A DNA stretch of 14,643 nucleotides from Chloroflexota bacterium (GTDB taxonomy: Bacteria > Chloroflexota > Anaerolineae > Aggregatilineales > Phototrophicaceae). The stretch spans positions 5,881-20,523 of the forward strand of contig JAPOYU010000036.1 in the NCBI GenBank assembly GCA_026706395.1, read 5' to 3'. The notes under the pieces are model-generated. The model did not search any database, was not told the DNA's origin, and saw only the letters and a program-made list of their open reading frames with translations. Each line of letters opens with the position of its first letter. Positions within the stretch are counted from its first letter, which is position 1. Below are positions 9,460-14,643 of the stretch, in pieces. The translations under genes were made by a program, and so were the position numbers.

Positions 9460-9474
9460 CCGCGATGGAATCGC

Positions 9475-9554
9475 AGGGGCGACCCTTGAGTCGCCCTCTC
9501 AAACCACCCCGTTACCTGTAGGGGCGACATACCATGTCGCCCGCAATAGAAAGG
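9475..9554 (+). repeat. Pair of hairpin-repeat copies before dehydrogenase 2
   Basis: First copy: GGGCGAC (9477-9483) pairs with GTCGCCC (9490-9496) around a 6-nt loop. Second copy: TGTA (9517-9520), then GGGCGACAT (9522-9530) pairing perfectly with ATGTCGCCC (9534-9542) around a 3-nt loop, then the box GCAATAGAAAGG ending at 9554. GAAAGG is the ribosome-binding site of the following gene. Neither hairpin has a T-run, so read-through from copy 1 to copy 2 is likely. Confidence 0.8.
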
Positions 9555-9563
9555 CGCAACCCA

Positions 9564-10664
9564 ATGCAAATGCAAGCAGCCATCCTCACCAAAGCCCACA
9601 GCCCTTTCAAAATCGAAACGGTAGAAATCGAGCCGCCCAAAGCGGGCGAAGTGCTCGTCAAAATGGCGGCGACCGGCATCTGCCACAGCGACTGGCATAT
9701 CGTGGCTGGCAAAGCCGAATTCGCCGCGCCCATGATCCTGGGCCACGAAGGCGCTGGCGTGGTTGAGGCGGTCGGCGCGGGCGTCACGCGGGTTCAGCCC
9801 GGCGATCACGTCACGCTGAGCTTCCGAGCCAGTTGCGGCGAATGCTTCTATTGCCAGAACGACCAAGCCTCCATCTGCGAAAATGACATGGACACGGTCG
9901 TCGCCGGCCTGCTGGGCGATGGCACGAGCCGCATATCCTGGCGCGGCGAGCCGGTCTATATCCTCGCTGGGCTCGGCACCTTCGCCGAATATATCGTCTG
10001 CCGCGAGGTCAGCGTCGTGCCGGTGCGTATGGATGTGCCGCTGGAGGTGGCGGCGCTGGTCGGCTGCGCAGTCTCGACTGGCGTGGGCGCGGCCATGTTC
10101 ACGGCTGAGGTGCGCGCCGGGCAGAGCGTGGCTGTCTTCGGCGCCGGCGGCGTGGGACTCAACATCATCCAGGGCGCGGCGTTATGCGGCGCCGATCCCA
10201 TCATCGCGGTCGATACCAACAGCAACAAAATGGAGATCGCGCGCGACTTCGGCGCGACCCACTGCCTGATGTCGGATGAAACTGTCGTCGCCGAGATTCA
10301 GAAGCTGAGCGAAGGGCGCGGCGCCGACCACTGCTTTGAATCCGTCGGCATCCCGGCTTTGCAGGAGACGGCGATTGCGGCCGTGCGGCCCGGCGGCATC
10401 GTGACGCTCGTGGGCTTGACGCCGCAAGACAGCGAGACCAAGTTCCTGGGCCAGGTGCTGACCATGACCGAGCGCAAGATCCGCGGCAGCCTCTACGGCT
10501 CGATCAATCCATCGCGGGATTTTCACTTGTTCCTGGATCTGTACATGGCGGGCAAGCTCAAGCTAGAGGAACTGGTGACGAATCGCTATCGGTTGGACCA
10601 GATCAACGAGGCCTACGCGAGCATGCTGACGGGCGATGTGGCCCGCGGCGTGATTGTGTTTTGA
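9564..10664 (+). CDS. Zinc-dependent alcohol dehydrogenase, MDR family (copy 2)
   Basis: A 366-residue paralogue of the preceding gene with every key residue at the same number: catalytic zinc C40, H61-E62 and C168; structural zinc C91, C94, C97 and C105; GAGGVG 193-198; D217. The pair arose by tandem duplication together with its leading hairpin repeats. Differences cluster around residues 51-60 (SYFPLPIICG against AEFAAPMILG), next to the active site, and at 106-115, so the two probably differ in substrate range. ATG 9564 follows GAAAGG (9549-9554) by 9 nt. Its last 44 nt including 4 nt past the stop (10625-10668) recur at 11351-11394 with two mismatches. No terminator is visible after it. 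Confidence 0.93.
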   Translation: MQMQAAILTKAHSPFKIETVEIEPPKAGEVLVKMAATGICHSDWHIVAGKAEFAAPMILGHEGAGVVEAVGAGVTRVQPGDHVTLSFRASCGECFYCQNDQASICENDMDTVVAGLLGDGTSRISWRGEPVYILAGLGTFAEYIVCREVSVVPVRMDVPLEVAALVGCAVSTGVGAAMFTAEVRAGQSVAVFGAGGVGLNIIQGAALCGADPIIAVDTNSNKMEIARDFGATHCLMSDETVVAEIQKLSEGRGADHCFESVGIPALQETAIAAVRPGGIVTLVGLTPQDSETKFLGQVLTMTERKIRGSLYGSINPSRDFHLFLDLYMAGKLKLEELVTNRYRLDQINEAYASMLTGDVARGVIVF

Positions 10665-10716
10665 TTGCCGAAGCCACGCAACTCAAAGCGGCCAGCAGGG
10701 AATCCACTTATCAATG

Positions 10717-10725
10717 TGATATACT
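10717..10725 (+). promoter_or_regulatory. Extended -10 promoter element for the Uma2 gene
   Basis: TGA directly before TATACT (10720-10725) forms an extended -10 element; no good -35 box is seen 17 nt upstream. Transcription would begin near 10732, about 30 nt before ATG 10761. It lies in the 96-nt gap after dehydrogenase 2. Confidence 0.5.
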
Positions 10726-10760
10726 GATTTTGGCTGAGAGGGAGTGAAAGCAAATCGGCG

Positions 10761-11333
10761 ATGGTTACCCGAGAGCGCGAATACACAATAGACGATGTTT
10801 GGCGGCTCGAGCGTCAGCCAATGAATTTGGCGGAGAAGTACTATCTCATTGATGGGGAGCTGTGCGTCAAGATGTCACCGAGTCATTCTCATGGGAGCAT
10901 TGCGAGCGAGATCGCGCGTCTCTTAGGCAATCATGTGGTCGAGCGCGGGTTAGGCAGAGTAACCATCGAAGTAGGCTATCACCCGTCGGGGGAGCGTCAC
11001 ACGGTGCTGCTGCCCGATGTCGCTTTCGAAAGCTGGGCGCGGGCAGCGCGAAAGCCGCTTAAGACTTATGCCCCCTATATGCCCGATCTGGCGGTGGAGG
11101 TGGTATCCCCTTCGCAGACGCTGGCGGAGACGCGCCGCAAAGCCGCTGTTTACCTGCGCCATGGCACGGATATGGTCTGGCTCATTGACCCGGAGCGTAA
11201 CAAAGCCGAGAGGTGGTCGGCCGCGGACGACGGCACAGCCAAAAGCGAGATCATTGAAATGGATGGTGAATTAAAGGGCGGCGCGCTCCTGCCCGGATTC
11301 ACGCTGCCGCTAAGACGCTTGTTTTCTCTATAA
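10761..11333 (+). CDS. Uma2-family (DUF820) restriction-endonuclease-like protein
   Basis: A 190-residue protein of the Uma2 family, which has a PD-(D/E)XK nuclease fold and is greatly expanded in cyanobacteria and Chloroflexota; its biological role is not settled. Visible core: YYLIDGELCVKMSPSHSHG at the N-terminus, D86 in LLPDVAF, D109 and E113 in PDLAVEVVSPSQT, then K127 in ETRRKAAVYLRHGTDMVWLIDP, all as expected for an intact catalytic set. Full family length. The purine run GAGAGGGAG (10736-10744) is about 16 nt before the ATG, too far for a normal ribosome-binding site, so initiation may be weak. The gene lies between two copies of the dehydrogenase 3' end, which suggests it was inserted there or is a survivor of local rearrangement. 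Confidence 0.87.
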   Translation: MVTREREYTIDDVWRLERQPMNLAEKYYLIDGELCVKMSPSHSHGSIASEIARLLGNHVVERGLGRVTIEVGYHPSGERHTVLLPDVAFESWARAARKPLKTYAPYMPDLAVEVVSPSQTLAETRRKAAVYLRHGTDMVWLIDPERNKAERWSAADDGTAKSEIIEMDGELKGGALLPGFTLPLRRLFSL

Positions 11334-11394
11334 TCGCTACATTCAACGAGGCTGACGGGCGATATGGCGCGCGGCGTGATTGTGTTTTGATTGC
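11334..11394 (+). pseudogene. Shrunken copy of the alcohol dehydrogenase 3' end
   Basis: Directly after the Uma2 stop, blocks of the dehydrogenase 2 end appear in order with the intervening bases lost: AATCGCTA (11332-11339; compare 10581-10588), TCAACGAGGC (11343-11352; compare 10603-10612), then 44 nt (11351-11394) that match 10625-10668 with two mismatches, reading GDMARGVIVF and stop TGA (11388-11390). Similarity runs 4 nt past the stop. The collinear blocks with deletions mark it as a degraded gene end rather than a chance motif. Confidence 0.7.
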
Positions 11395-11402
11395 TGCAAA
11401 TC

Positions 11403-11430
11403 TTGTAGCACGGCCATGGTATCATATAAA
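11403..11430 (+). promoter_or_regulatory. Possible promoter for the PLD nuclease gene
   Basis: TTGTAG (11403-11408) and TATAAA (11425-11430) are 16 nt apart. An overlapping TGGTATCAT (11417-11425) would also serve as an extended -10. Start near 11437, a short leader to ATG 11465. The base composition turns AT-rich here, which raises the chance of random matches. Confidence 0.35.
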
Positions 11431-11464
11431 CTGGGTTCAATCCAAAGACCGCCCATTATTTGCT

Positions 11465-12643
11465 ATGGCTAAACGCATACTACTTCAAGGAATAACTACA
11501 GAAAACCATCTTTCTGCAGTTAAACATATCTTACAAATCGATCACCCAACTCGTGCAATTGTGAGCGTGGCGTTCATGAATGCGCGTGGTCTCTATCTTC
11601 TCCGAGATCAAGTTAAGCAGATTGCTGGCATTACTACGGTGCTGGCAGGGATACGGAACGGAATTACGTCAGCGCAAGGACTGAGAACAATGCTAGAGCT
11701 AGGTTGTACAACCTACGCTGTTGACACTGGTTCACGCAGGCTTGTCTTCCATCCGAAAATATACATGTCACGCAATCCGAATCAGGCGCGTCTACTAGTT
11801 GGAAGCGCGAACCTCACAGTCGGCGGGCTAACCTCGAACATTGAAGCCAGTATCCTTCTGAATCTGGAACTTCGCAAACCGGACGACATAGCTTTCGTCG
11901 AAAGGCTGGAAAACCAGATTGACGGAATGATTGCAGAATTCTCTGAAAACGTGATCCATATTTCAGACTATGCAGCGATTAAAGACCTCTTGGCCTCCGG
12001 ACGTGTAATTGATGAAAGTACAGATCAAGGACCAACCATGTCAGGTTCGTCGAGAAGGCGTAATCTGGATACGGTTCCAAGGATGAATCTCAAGACACAC
12101 ACAATTGCAACGCCTCCGGCAGAACCATACCAAGACGTGTCAGAAGCAACCGCACCGCCTGCACTCTCAACTCCATTCGAACTTCTGAAACCTGTACGAG
12201 AGCGACTGGCCTTAGTGTGGAAGAGCAATCCACTGACGAGACGCGATCTTTGCATTCCGACCGGTACTAACACCAATCCTACCGGCTCCATGCTTTTCAA
12301 AAAGGGCGCTTTTGAGAGTATTGATCAGAGACATTACTTTCGCGATGAAGTATTTGCTGACCTCGATTGGCAATTTGATACTGCGAAACGGCGTGAGCAT
12401 TTTGAGCGCACAGAAGGCCGTTTCCAAATAATTGTTCGGGATGTGAACTTTGGCGTTTTTACTTTGAGGATCTCTCACAACACCCGAACAGACACCAAGG
12501 CGTACATTCAGAAAAACAGTATGACCCAGCTGCATTGGGGTACAGTGCGTGAACTTGTTGGTAAAGAAGATCTTCTTGAGCGAACTTTGTGGCTGTATCG
12601 AGACAATGTCTACGATGGGTTTTACGTCATAGAAATCGACTAG
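11465..12643 (+). CDS. PLD-fold restriction endonuclease, BfiI/NgoFVII-like layout
   Basis: A 392-residue protein. The N-terminal domain (about 1-170) has one phospholipase-D nuclease half-site: H96-P-K98 in VFHPKIY, then G113-S-A-N116-L-T and E127 (SNIEASI), so an active site would form at a dimer interface as in BfiI. Residues about 185-240 are a Ser/Thr/Pro-rich linker. The C-terminal part (about 241-392, with LTRRDLCIPTGTNTNPTGS and KAYIQKNSMTQLHWG) resembles the DNA-recognition domain of NgoFVII-type enzymes; this part is recalled, not searched. PLD nucleases cut without metal. ATG 11465 begins the conserved-looking part; an in-frame TTG at 11387 overlaps the dehydrogenase relic. No clear ribosome-binding site. 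Its stop overlaps that of the convergent methyltransferase, its likely protective partner. Confidence 0.78.
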   Translation: MAKRILLQGITTENHLSAVKHILQIDHPTRAIVSVAFMNARGLYLLRDQVKQIAGITTVLAGIRNGITSAQGLRTMLELGCTTYAVDTGSRRLVFHPKIYMSRNPNQARLLVGSANLTVGGLTSNIEASILLNLELRKPDDIAFVERLENQIDGMIAEFSENVIHISDYAAIKDLLASGRVIDESTDQGPTMSGSSRRRNLDTVPRMNLKTHTIATPPAEPYQDVSEATAPPALSTPFELLKPVRERLALVWKSNPLTRRDLCIPTGTNTNPTGSMLFKKGAFESIDQRHYFRDEVFADLDWQFDTAKRREHFERTEGRFQIIVRDVNFGVFTLRISHNTRTDTKAYIQKNSMTQLHWGTVRELVGKEDLLERTLWLYRDNVYDGFYVIEID

Positions 12644-14304
12644 AGCAAGCGTTTTTGTGCACATGGACTTTGGACTGTCTTTGATGTTACACGGTTGCGC
12701 CTATCGCGAAGTCTCTTCCAGCCCAACAGCAATTCGTCCTGTTCAGAAATTGAAAGCCCCAGAGGACTGAGTATGGTTCGTCCTTGTCGCTGCAAGACAT
12801 CATTAATTGACTCGAATCTTATCAACTTGTCAAGCAGGTTTATTTCGGTCTTTACATTTGCCGGGACTGGAATAAGAAGCTGTTCGATTTCCGACGGAAC
12901 CAGTTCCAGAACACCCCCGCCATAGTGCCGGCCCTCCAACTCTGCGCTCAGAGCAGTCAGAGGATTGACAAAACTATATACGAGTTCTCTTGCAGTTCCT
13001 TCTTTAACTGAAATTCGATATGCAGTATCCGTAGTATACGCATTCAACTCGTTGAGAATAAGGCGAGGCACATGATGCGCTCGCTTAAGCATCCCGATTC
13101 TGGTCGAATACACAGACGGCACCGAATACCATGGTTTGCGCACGCGACACTTGTACCGCTTGTTCAGATTACTTTGTTCTCCGTGTAGTATGTAGGCCTT
13201 GGCAGCTGGATTATTTTCAACCGTACGATCTTTGAACCATATGAAGTTCGTTGGATACCCTTTTTCGGCATTTGACTTATGTTGGGCTAGGTCATAGATA
13301 ACGCCGGGACAGTGCTGACTACGCCCAAACATTGGATGTGACCACCTATCAAGACCAAACCGTTGAACAGTTTCGTCCGATACTAAGAAAAACTTATTTG
13401 CTCCGGTGACAATCCCCACATCAACTCTGGCAATCTCAGCGAATCGACGTACAGACTTCAAAGCTGTCAGATCATCAAGTAATGACCGAGTTTTTGGTTC
13501 AAGCAGTGCCCTAGTCCACTTGCCTTCAACAGTTTTTCCATTTATTGGATGGGGGACATCAAATATAACATCCGGGTCTCCACTTACAAATTCCCGCCCA
13601 CGAACCGGATATATTCCTACGCCCTCAGCGCGTTCACATTTATCACGTCTCTTTTCTGCAAGTAAAAGTACTACGCCCTGCAACGTGTCAGAAAACCAGA
13701 GTTCTTCAGGGTCAATGATTATGATCTTTCGAGCATGATTGCCTATATATTCCCTAAGAGATCTGGCGTGCAAGACATGGATAATCTCTGCAGGCACAAC
13801 CATTGCGAGGCGCCCACCCGGGCGAAGCAATGCAAAGGATGCCAAGACAAACGGAACCCAGGCGTTAGTATGTTTAGTGAATTTGCAGTTCAGGTCGTTG
13901 AAGATTCTCTCGGCACGACTTTGAAAGACAGATGGCAGATACTGATAGCGAATGAATGGGGGGTTGCCTACAACTGCATCAAATCTAAAGCCGTCATTTT
14001 CTATCGCTTCAGCTGCCCAACCAAGGAAGTCATTCGCATACACTGTGATATCGGTTAGACCGACGGACTGAGCACGACATAGAGCTTTATTTGCCTCATC
14101 GTTATCAATTTCAAATCCGCAAACAGTTACATCATCTAAGTTCAACCCGATTTGTTCAAGAAATACTCCGTCGCCGCAACCGGGCTCCAAAATAGTCTTC
14201 GGTTTAATGGTGTCTACCCATCGTACAAGAAACTGCGCAAGATCATCGGACGTATAATATCCACCGCGCAACTTCTGTTCCGATTCGTTCTCTATAAAGT
14301 TCAT
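12640..14304 (-). CDS. N6-adenine DNA methyltransferase, gamma class (TaqI/Eco57I-like)
   Basis: A 554-residue methyltransferase on the minus strand that should methylate adenine N6 in the recognition site of the neighbouring PLD nuclease. Motif order X-I-IV is that of the gamma class: motif X GGYYTSDDLAQFL (14-26), motif I ILEPGCGDGVFL (38-49) for AdoMet binding, acidic E65 (GFEID), NDF at 91-93, and the catalytic NPPF at 114-117. The C-terminal half carries a target-recognition region, with VGIVTGANKFFLVSD typical of TaqI-like specificity domains. The ATG (14302-14304) is preceded by GGTGAG (complement of 14310-14315) 5 nt upstream. No ATPase or nuclease domain is fused. The gene ends inside the last codon region of the nuclease gene, so antisense overlap of the two transcripts is expected. 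Base composition is lower in GC than the metabolic genes. Confidence 0.9.
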   Translation of the reverse strand: MNFIENESEQKLRGGYYTSDDLAQFLVRWVDTIKPKTILEPGCGDGVFLEQIGLNLDDVTVCGFEIDNDEANKALCRAQSVGLTDITVYANDFLGWAAEAIENDGFRFDAVVGNPPFIRYQYLPSVFQSRAERIFNDLNCKFTKHTNAWVPFVLASFALLRPGGRLAMVVPAEIIHVLHARSLREYIGNHARKIIIIDPEELWFSDTLQGVVLLLAEKRRDKCERAEGVGIYPVRGREFVSGDPDVIFDVPHPINGKTVEGKWTRALLEPKTRSLLDDLTALKSVRRFAEIARVDVGIVTGANKFFLVSDETVQRFGLDRWSHPMFGRSQHCPGVIYDLAQHKSNAEKGYPTNFIWFKDRTVENNPAAKAYILHGEQSNLNKRYKCRVRKPWYSVPSVYSTRIGMLKRAHHVPRLILNELNAYTTDTAYRISVKEGTARELVYSFVNPLTALSAELEGRHYGGGVLELVPSEIEQLLIPVPANVKTEINLLDKLIRFESINDVLQRQGRTILSPLGLSISEQDELLLGWKRLRDRRNRVTSKTVQSPCAQKRLL

Positions 14305-14480
14305 GGTTGCTCACCAGAGTGGACTACCCAAATGAAAACTCATCATATGAAGTTTACACCAATTGAATCGTCGGCAGCAAATATTGCTTCAGTTGAGCAT
14401 CACATCCGATTCCCATAAGCCTGCCCCACCGCGCTGGCCTGCGAACTGGGCAAAAGCGGCAAGGCCGCTCCTGAATCGCC

Positions 14481-14510
14481 GATATGGTGCGGGGCATGAT
14501 TGTGTTCTGA
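14481..14510 (+). pseudogene. Diverged copy of the alcohol dehydrogenase 3' end
   Basis: Reads DMVRGMIVF then TGA, and matches 11361-11390 at 26 of 30 positions. The stop context TTCTGACCGCG (14504-14514) differs by one base from that of dehydrogenase 1 (TTCTAACCGCG, 9454-9464), so this fragment may descend from a different copy than the one after Uma2. The rest of the 257-nt gap (14305-14561) holds the methyltransferase leader and a small hairpin (14455-14469), and nothing else recognised. Confidence 0.5.
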
Positions 14511-14561: not shown

Positions 14562-14643
14562 CTAGCCGTCCGCCTCGCGGATGAGCAGTTCCTGCCCGGG
14601 GTAAATCCAGCGTCCCATGTGCTCAAGCTGATTGACTCTGATG
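14562..14643 (-). CDS. C-terminal end of a LysM-domain-like protein (partial)
   Basis: On the minus strand the last 26 codons read IRVNQLEHMGRWIYPGQELL then IREADG, ending at TAG (14562-14564). The N-x-L ... IYPGQ-x-LLI pattern is the second half of a LysM repeat, a small peptidoglycan or chitin-binding module, and here it closes the protein. The rest lies beyond the window, so the attached enzyme or the number of repeats is unknown. It would be transcribed in the same direction as the methyltransferase, upstream of it, with 257 nt between them. High GC, like the core genes. Confidence 0.6.
   Translation of the reverse strand, partial: IRVNQLEHMGRWIYPGQELLIREADG

What the first reader, a model, noticed from the sequence alone, without database searches (positions are those of the whole stretch)
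10625..14510. Accessory genes bracketed by repeated copies of the alcohol dehydrogenase 3' end
The real end of dehydrogenase 2 (10625-10668) is repeated after Uma2 (11351-11394, 42 of 44 nt identical, continuing past the stop) and again after the restriction-modification genes (14481-14510, 26 of 30 nt against the second copy). The intervals thus hold one cargo each: Uma2, then the PLD nuclease plus methyltransferase. Two models fit. In the first, the gene end is a landing site and each insertion rebuilds it, as integrative elements do at tRNA 3' ends. In the second, an ancient tandem dehydrogenase array decayed and took in cargo. The collinear deletions at 11332-11352 favour decay for that copy; the cargo boundaries favour insertion.
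Basis: partly seen in the sequence, partly recalled or inferred. Interest (0 to 1): 0.7.

Follow-up and report, generated by a model that had tools for sequence, protein, structure and literature searches.

The report
Stacked gene cassettes with gene-end scars
In an uncultured bacterium, restriction-type and other accessory genes have piled up between two ordinary genes, and short leftovers of those neighbours' ends mark the joins, which suggests that alternative versions of one spot were stacked side by side rather than carried in by a dedicated mobile element.

Summary
The repeats are real: 42/44 nt (copy 2) and 26/30 nt (copy 3). They are not a dispersed repeat: in 17 related MAGs every clear match to the 66-nt dehydrogenase end lies at this locus. 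In 30 informative loci (29 relatives plus the window) the interval behind the last dehydrogenase (adh2) is a cargo hotspot, bounded on the far side by a convergent IMPDH-like gene (Z) where contigs reach it. Two relatives carry adh|PLD|methyltransferase|Z without repeats. I read it as a stack: adh2-Uma2 | adh end-PLD-MTase-Z end | adh end-LysM. A second stack (EcoRI-like pair, Z end, LysM) also has a repeat-free single-cargo counterpart. Scars occur in 12 of 17 multi-cargo loci and 1-2 of 13 others. A 261-nt tract identical to relative L007 starts about 20 nt before the adh2 end. Best explanation: recombinational stacking of alternative alleles. A landing site or a decayed third dehydrogenase is disfavoured. 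The exact recombination route is not shown. Closest published analogue found: Vibrio T6SS orphan-immunity arrays.

The parts
9534..10664 (+). adh2, zinc-type alcohol dehydrogenase; left border of the hotspot; its last 44 nt are copy 1
   Evidence: Pfam ADH_N and ADH_zinc_N; orthologue is the last full dehydrogenase in relatives
10644..10904 (.). 261-nt tract identical to relative L007, from inside the adh2 end into Uma2
   Evidence: the alignment is 86.7% identical overall
10761..11333 (+). Uma2-family cargo gene (190 aa)
   Evidence: Pfam PF05685 E 4e-29; same place in several relatives
11344..11390 (+). scar a2: remnant of an adh 3' end behind Uma2 (copy 2)
   Evidence: Uma2-scar alignment is collinear with L016 and L011
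11465..12643 (+). PLD-family putative restriction endonuclease (392 aa)
   Evidence: BfiI 2c1l E 3.6e-4 over residues 48-135; PLDc_2 below cut-off; 68-72% identical in L090 and L087
12640..14304 (-). Eco57I-type adenine-specific DNA methyltransferase (554 aa), overlapping the PLD gene's end by 4 nt
   Evidence: Pfam M_Eco57I_C 1.2e-88, PADLOC MTase_II 6.7e-188; 85% and 78% identical in G022 and G025
14305..14401 (.). spacer that matches the native methyltransferase-Z spacer of single-cargo relatives
   Evidence: 14305-14399: 74/93 with L090 and 75/87 with L087, scores 50.7 and 53.5 against shuffle maxima 14.0 and 15.2
14402..14448 (-). scar g: 47 nt of the 3' end of the IMPDH-like gene Z
14476..14510 (+). 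scar a3: second adh-end remnant (copy 3); a gapped alignment extends it back to 14444
   Evidence: shares GATATGG with a2 and with no adh end (0 of 32) or other scar (0 of 7)
14563..14643 (-). 3' end of the LysM protein gene, cut by the window end
   Evidence: in relatives L001, L002, L007 it abuts Uma2 directly; 84.6% identical to the end of L007's protein

Best explanation
The interval between the convergent genes adh2 and Z (an IMPDH-like gene beyond the window) is a hotspot with many alternative alleles, each of the form adh2-cargo-Z. DNA from another lineage's allele sometimes recombines so that its cargo is added beside the resident cargo instead of replacing it. The redundant stretch of Z and adh between two cargos is lost, and its edges, the last tens of nucleotides of Z and/or adh next to the cargos, survive as scars. 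In the window, an allele of the type adh-PLD-MTase-Z came to lie between Uma2 and LysM at an adh scar that was already there, leaving a2 before it and g plus a3 behind it. Shown: the scars, the native spacer, the single-cargo counterparts, the restriction to this locus, one recent exchange with an edge inside the adh end. Inferred: that stacking was by recombination between alleles, and the route. I favour one homologous and one illegitimate end (homology-facilitated illegitimate recombination); integration of a circle through the adh scar, or a full duplication later trimmed by deletion, are close alternatives that I cannot separate. The cargo genes look like a BfiI-like nuclease and its methyltransferase, so the presumed benefit is defence.
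For: Single-cargo alleles adh|PLD|MTase|Z in L087 and L090 without scars; the window keeps their MTase-Z spacer and 47 nt of Z. Independent second case: L084 (adh|EcoRI-like and MTase|Z) and L079 (same pair|Z end|LysM), spacer 120/160. Third: the L081 pair also stands next to Z in G001, G004 and G007, whose adh side holds Uma2 and LysM on other contigs. Scars in 12 of 17 multi-cargo loci and 2 of 13 others if the uncertain L009 is counted, Fisher p 0.004. Reversed, mid-gene and head pieces of adh reach the threshold in 0 of 31 intervals, the adh end in 8 of 31. Clear matches of the adh end only at this locus in 17 MAGs; MTase (2 of 34 genomes) and 275-aa family (10 of 34) only at this locus. 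Stacked 275-aa copies mostly group with single-copy alleles of other genomes. 261-nt identical tract with L007. MTase 83% window-L087 but 77% L087-L090, although adh of L087-L090 is 89%. GATATGG shared only by a2 and a3.
Against: Five stacked loci show no scar (L001, L002, L004, L007, L010). Modules were assigned after seeing the data and related loci are not independent. The adh-PLD spacer matches L087 only marginally (8.9 against a shuffle maximum of 7.6) and L090 not at all; six of seven 275-aa spacer comparisons do not exceed shuffles. L017's first two 275-aa copies fall in one clade (0.96), so an old duplication is possible there. PLD identities (76% window-L087, 75% L087-L090) show the incongruence more weakly; for the 275-aa family 0 of 9 pairs have cargo more similar than adh by 0.08. 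Z controls reached 29.5, so weak Z scars are unsafe. L082's adh remnant scores only 18, within background. No intermediate with a long Z-adh block between cargos was seen. Ku was not found in 34 of 34 genomes.
Confidence: 0.72

Rival explanations
1. Insertion with long target duplication: the restriction-modification pair moved in as a unit and doubled a target of some 30-50 nt, the adh scar behind Uma2.
For: PLD-MTase is bracketed by a2 and a3 (26/30), and the two share GATATGG, found in none of 32 adh ends and none of 7 other scars, so the target does look doubled. Four relatives (L001, L002, L004, L007) lack the block between about 11338 and 14564.
Against: The inserted block includes the native MTase-Z spacer and a piece of Z, which target duplication does not predict; the same pair elsewhere (L087, L090) sits without a duplication; Z-end scars occur beside cargos that do not look like restriction-modification genes.
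Confidence: 0.12
2. Decay of an ancient tandem dehydrogenase array: copies 2 and 3 are the last pieces of further dehydrogenases, with cargo taken in between.
For: Dehydrogenase arrays of two or three genes are common at this locus and decayed copies with internal deletions exist upstream in L007 and L014. Small collinear deletions are visible in copy 2.
Against: No full or long copy lies behind the cargo in the 30 informative loci; head and mid-gene pieces are at background there; the Z-end scars are not explained.
Confidence: 0.08
3. Landing site: a site-specific element integrates at the 3' end of adh2 and rebuilds the gene end each time, as at tRNA genes.
For: The inner edge of the adh scars is the stop codon, and repeats separate successive cargos.
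Against: No integrase among the 12 cargo proteins given to Pfam; single-cargo alleles lack the repeat; scar lengths vary, aligned 47-67 nt for adh and about 33-130 nt for Z; Z leaves scars too; five of 9 scars fit a foreign adh end better.
Confidence: 0.04
4. Tandem duplication of cargo plus gene end, followed by divergence or replacement of one copy.
For: Several loci hold two or three paralogues of the 275-aa family separated by Z ends; L017's first two copies share a clade.
Against: In the window, L079, L051, L080 and L016 the neighbouring cargos are unrelated families; most stacked 275-aa copies group with single-copy alleles of other genomes.
Confidence: 0.04

Closest known systems
Orphan immunity-gene arrays of Vibrio cholerae T6SS clusters (PMC5361080; passages seen)
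   Same: Successive acquisitions at one locus by horizontal transfer, older genes kept behind newer ones, remnants such as a shifted-back 3' end of an effector gene, and homology-facilitated illegitimate recombination proposed as route.
   Different: There one anchor and toxin-immunity modules; here two intact metabolic genes flank the interval, each can leave end scars, and the cargo is restriction-type and other genes.
Insertion of restriction-modification genes with long target duplication (discussed in PMC3031569; passages seen; the original papers were not seen)
   Same: Restriction-type genes bracketed by direct repeats of tens of nucleotides.
   Different: Here the block carries the spacer and end of a gene that natively follows the cargo, and the same pair occurs without duplication.
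Illegitimate recombination assisted by homology at variable segments of E. coli (PMC2884548; passages seen)
   Same: Replacement of one intergenic segment by another without a recognised mobile element.
   Different: That paper treats short dimorphic segments; stacking with gene-end scars is not in the passages seen.
Integrative elements at gene 3' ends (general knowledge, recalled)
   Same: Direct repeats of a gene end separate successive acquisitions.
   Different: No recombinase recognised, variable repeat length, no repeats in single-cargo alleles, scars from both flanking genes.

Membership tests
Allele stacking by homology-facilitated illegitimate recombination | one end joined through homology to the resident locus | tested here: inconclusive
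   261-nt identical tract with an edge in the adh end shows exchange, but not for the PLD-MTase block itself; the a2-PLD spacer test was marginal.
Allele stacking by homology-facilitated illegitimate recombination | other end joined without homology | tested here: inconclusive
   Similarity to the Z gene stops at 14448 and a different sequence follows; no parent molecule with that breakpoint was found.
Allele stacking by homology-facilitated illegitimate recombination | cargo exists elsewhere as an alternative allele at the same place | tested here: met
   L087 and L090 for PLD-MTase, L084 for the EcoRI-like pair, L081 for a further pair.
Integrative element at a gene 3' end | site-specific recombinase in the element | tested here: not met
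   None among 12 cargo proteins given to Pfam; a recombinase acting from elsewhere is not excluded.
Integrative element at a gene 3' end | each insertion leaves a copy of the target end | tested here: not met
   Single-cargo alleles lack it; L015 is the one exception and L009 is uncertain.
R-M insertion with long target duplication | repeats flank the R-M genes and the empty allele has one copy | tested here: inconclusive
   a2 and a3 flank the pair. L080 has Uma2, one scar, then LysM, but L001, L002, L004 and L007 have none.
Type II restriction-modification system | adjacent sequence-specific methyltransferase and nuclease | tested here: met
   By homology only: Eco57I-type MTase next to a PLD protein matching BfiI at E 3.6e-4.
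Type II restriction-modification system | matching recognition sites and enzyme activity | not testable with these tools
   Needs an assay.
Dispersed repeat | copies at unrelated places in the genome | tested here: not met
   In 17 MAGs all matches with E of 1e-6 or better lie at this locus; three weaker hits that I read are not scars. The window's own genome is not held.

The most novel reading that the evidence does not exclude
The two gene ends act as reusable docking ports: short adh-end and Z-end scars inside the stack offer extra homology for further cassettes, so the locus works as an integron-like but integrase-free cassette store, run by ordinary recombination and shared across a genus of uncultured Chloroflexota.
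Probability: 0.25. Interest if true: 0.75.

Novelty: new variant of a known kind. Interest (0 to 1): 0.5.

Why it matters
Hotspots without integrases are usually thought to swap genes through their flanks; how they add genes is less clear. Here scars of both flanking genes let one read the joins, and single-cargo counterparts of stacked cargo exist, so the steps can be tested on sequence alone. The same search (look for both flanking gene ends inside a variable interval) could be applied to any hotspot, and it may reveal stacking that gene-level comparison overlooks because the scars are only tens of nucleotides long.

Tried and rejected
Dispersed repeat: rejected. Three weaker off-locus hits (G006 C1, G016 C88, G004 C153) were read and are not scars; the other weak hits were not read. 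A Z-end match in L009 (score 26) is left uncertain because mid-Z controls reached 29.5 and a reversed control 26; I therefore raised the Z threshold from 25 to 30 after seeing the controls. L015's right border is uncertain: its Z stretch is 52% identical and a full Z lies on another contig. Left out before the counts: L005 and L085 (contig ends within about 340 nt), L088 and L092 (dehydrogenases in other surroundings), L093 and L097 (pieces with dehydrogenases only); the control table has 31 rows because it keeps L005 and L085 and omits L008, whose interval is 3 nt. L051 and L002 come from the same MAG. Six loci (L001, L002, L004, L007, L080, window) end before Z, so scars further on cannot be seen. 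Spacer tests: the a2-PLD test was marginal with L087 and negative with L090; of seven 275-aa-family comparisons with single alleles six did not exceed shuffles and one did, with very unequal lengths. Cargo against adh2 divergence is weak where a genome's single adh may not be the orthologue of adh2; cargo was more similar by 0.08 or more in 17 of 36 Uma2 pairs, 2 of 15 LysM pairs, 1 of 3 MTase pairs, 0 of 3 PLD pairs and 0 of 9 pairs of the 275-aa family. I lean only on the three-way MTase comparison. I first called Z 'Gfo' in notes and scripts; that was a guess and wrong.

Literature: eight searches listed nothing that names this locus; I saw listings, and passages of three papers. This covers only the open-licence library and those terms.
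Full report
WHAT WAS CHECKED. The three copies of the dehydrogenase end are present as described: 42/44 between copies 1 and 2, 26/30 between copies 2 and 3. Shuffled sequence gave at most 26/44 (100 shuffles) and 20/30 (500 shuffles). Between them lie a Uma2-family protein, a PLD-like protein that matches the BfiI restriction endonuclease (2c1l, E 3.6e-4) and an Eco57I-type methyltransferase.

WHERE IT COMES FROM. No genome is held for the window. Its adh2 protein is 89-92% identical over nearly its whole length to proteins in ten Chloroflexota MAGs. One of them, G007, belongs to a genus of which 34 genomes are held; 31 of these have a dehydrogenase match at E 1e-150 or better. Several isolate names suggest sponge samples; that is my reading of the names, not a tool result. 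I fetched the locus from further genomes. After leaving out pieces with too little sequence or other surroundings (listed under Tried and rejected), 29 relatives plus the window were informative.

A HOTSPOT BETWEEN TWO CONVERGENT GENES. In the informative loci whose contig reaches far enough, the interval behind the last dehydrogenase ends at the 3' end of a minus-strand gene Z. Z resembles IMP dehydrogenase (best E 9.3e-4). It was found at E 1e-100 or better in 31 of 98 family genomes, once in each except G006, where two partial matches lie on different contigs. The interval is 3 nt in L008 and 195 nt in L083. Elsewhere it holds one or several of these: Uma2; a LysM protein (LysM E 3.8e-4 in L014, just below Pfam's cut-off); PLD plus methyltransferase; an EcoRI-like endonuclease plus N6-methyltransferase; a 275-aa family without Pfam match; an SH3-domain protein; others.

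SINGLE-CARGO COUNTERPARTS. L087 and L090 read adh|PLD|methyltransferase|Z with no scar. The window's sequence next to the methyltransferase start (14305-14399) matches their methyltransferase-Z spacer, 75/87 and 74/93 aligned positions, scores 53.5 and 50.7 against shuffle maxima of 15.2 and 14.0. It runs on through 47 nt of the Z end (14402-14448) and then stops matching. So this Z end looks like what is left of a Z gene that once stood behind this cargo. The next recognisable piece is the third adh end, then LysM. L084 and L079 form an independent pair of the same kind: adh|EcoRI-like and methyltransferase|Z in L084; the same pair, a 36-nt Z end and LysM in L079, with 120/160 spacer positions identical. 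A third pair, the 178-aa and 114-aa proteins alone between adh and Z in L081, also stands next to Z in G001, G004 and G007, whose adh contigs hold Uma2 and LysM. In L082 a 102-nt Z end is followed by a short adh-like remnant that does not exceed background on its own (score 18), but the flank behind it matches the flank behind L011's adh scar, 37/43.

WHERE THE SCARS COME FROM. Of 9 adh scars, five (L003, L011, L078, L080, L015) fit an adh end of another genome clearly better than their own; L011 and L078 share one by descent. The window's a2 fits its own adh2 and those of L002 and L007 equally well. Alignment of Uma2 through the scar is collinear between the window, L016 and L011; similar junctions stand in L078 and L080, and L003 and L014 have what look by eye like Uma2 3' remnants followed by the scar. 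Behind this scar stand different cargos: PLD-methyltransferase in the window, a 166-aa protein in L016, the 275-aa family in L011 and L078, LysM in L080, L003 and L014. The simplest reading is that the scar is old and the cargo behind it has changed. a2 and a3 of the window share GATATGG, which none of 32 adh ends and none of the 7 other scars has, so the two window scars are probably copies of one another: the adh scar was doubled when the PLD block arrived.

NOT MAINLY TANDEM DUPLICATION, NOT A ROVING ELEMENT. In the tree of the 275-aa family most stacked copies group with single-copy alleles of other genomes: L078's third with L013 (support 1.0); the first copies of L082, L078 and L011 with L086 (1.0); L006's third with L009 (0.89), joined by L017's third (0.81). 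L017's first two copies fall in one clade (0.96), so an old duplication is possible there. All matches of this family in the 34 genus genomes (10 genomes, E 1e-5) and of the methyltransferase (2 genomes, E 1e-30) lie at this locus. Uma2 and LysM were not searched genome-wide.

TRACES OF EXCHANGE. The window and L007 are identical over 261 nt (10644-10904) in an alignment that is 86.7% identical overall; it is the longest exact tract among the 32 loci compared. By my arithmetic a run like that would have a chance near 1e-16 at a given start if sites were independent. Its left edge lies about 20 nt before the end of adh2, inside the repeated gene end. The methyltransferase is 83% identical between the window and L087 but 77% between L087 and L090, whose adh genes are 89% identical, so cargo and flank differ in history; for PLD the figures are 76% and 75%, a weaker signal. 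In PLD and methyltransferase comparisons third codon positions differ most, consistent with maintained function.

MECHANISM. Exchange through both flanking genes would swap cargos without scars, which fits most single-cargo loci. If one side joins by homology and the other does not, cargos are added and a piece of a flanking gene is caught between them. Deletions then erase redundant sequence, but not into genes under selection, which would explain why only the extreme 3' ends remain. This last point is inference. Ku was not found in 34 of 34 genomes. ComEC and DprA families are present in all 34 but also in E. coli, so uptake by transformation is possible, not shown. I cannot separate one-sided homology, circle integration through the scar, and full duplication with trimming.

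COMPARISON. The nearest published case I found is the orphan immunity arrays of Vibrio cholerae T6SS clusters, for which homology-facilitated illegitimate recombination is proposed (PMC5361080, passages). R-M insertion with long target duplication (discussed in PMC3031569, passages) and homology-assisted replacement at variable segments (PMC2884548, passages) are related. Nothing in the listings describes stacked restriction-type cargo with end scars of two intact metabolic genes. I class it as a new variant of a known kind.

Noticed in passing
L007:3975-4278 and L014:6270-6713: Upstream in the dehydrogenase array both loci hold a decayed dehydrogenase that keeps head and end but has lost the middle, so array decay does happen here, only not behind the cargo.
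   Followed up: partly
L002 and L051 (both COS3_bin_1): One MAG holds two versions of the locus on two contigs (Uma2|LysM, and a 546-aa protein|Z end|LysM|Z); mixed strains in the bin or a real duplication.
   Followed up: no
L084:2473-3802 and L079:2768-4101: An EcoRI-like endonuclease (Pfam E 2.9e-13 in L084) overlapping an N6-methyltransferase gene: a second restriction-modification pair in the same hotspot.
   Followed up: partly
L006, L009, L011-L013, L015, L017, L078, L082, L086: A roughly 275-aa protein family without Pfam match, present in 10 of 34 genus genomes and there found only at this locus, often two or three per stack. Function unknown.
   Followed up: partly
L081:3641-4532, L098:2263-3148, L099:2256-3144, L100:2566-3451: A 178-aa and a 114-aa protein side by side next to Z in four genomes; by eye the small one resembles RelE-type toxins, not tested.
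   Followed up: partly
window 9474-9545: Two short palindromic elements (GGGGCGAC...GTCGCCC) between the two dehydrogenases; the GGGGCGAC/G core also occurs in L003, L010, L015 and L080. Possibly a dispersed intergenic repeat.
   Followed up: no
L099, last 50 nt: The contig ends in a run of G, probably an assembly artefact.
   Followed up: no
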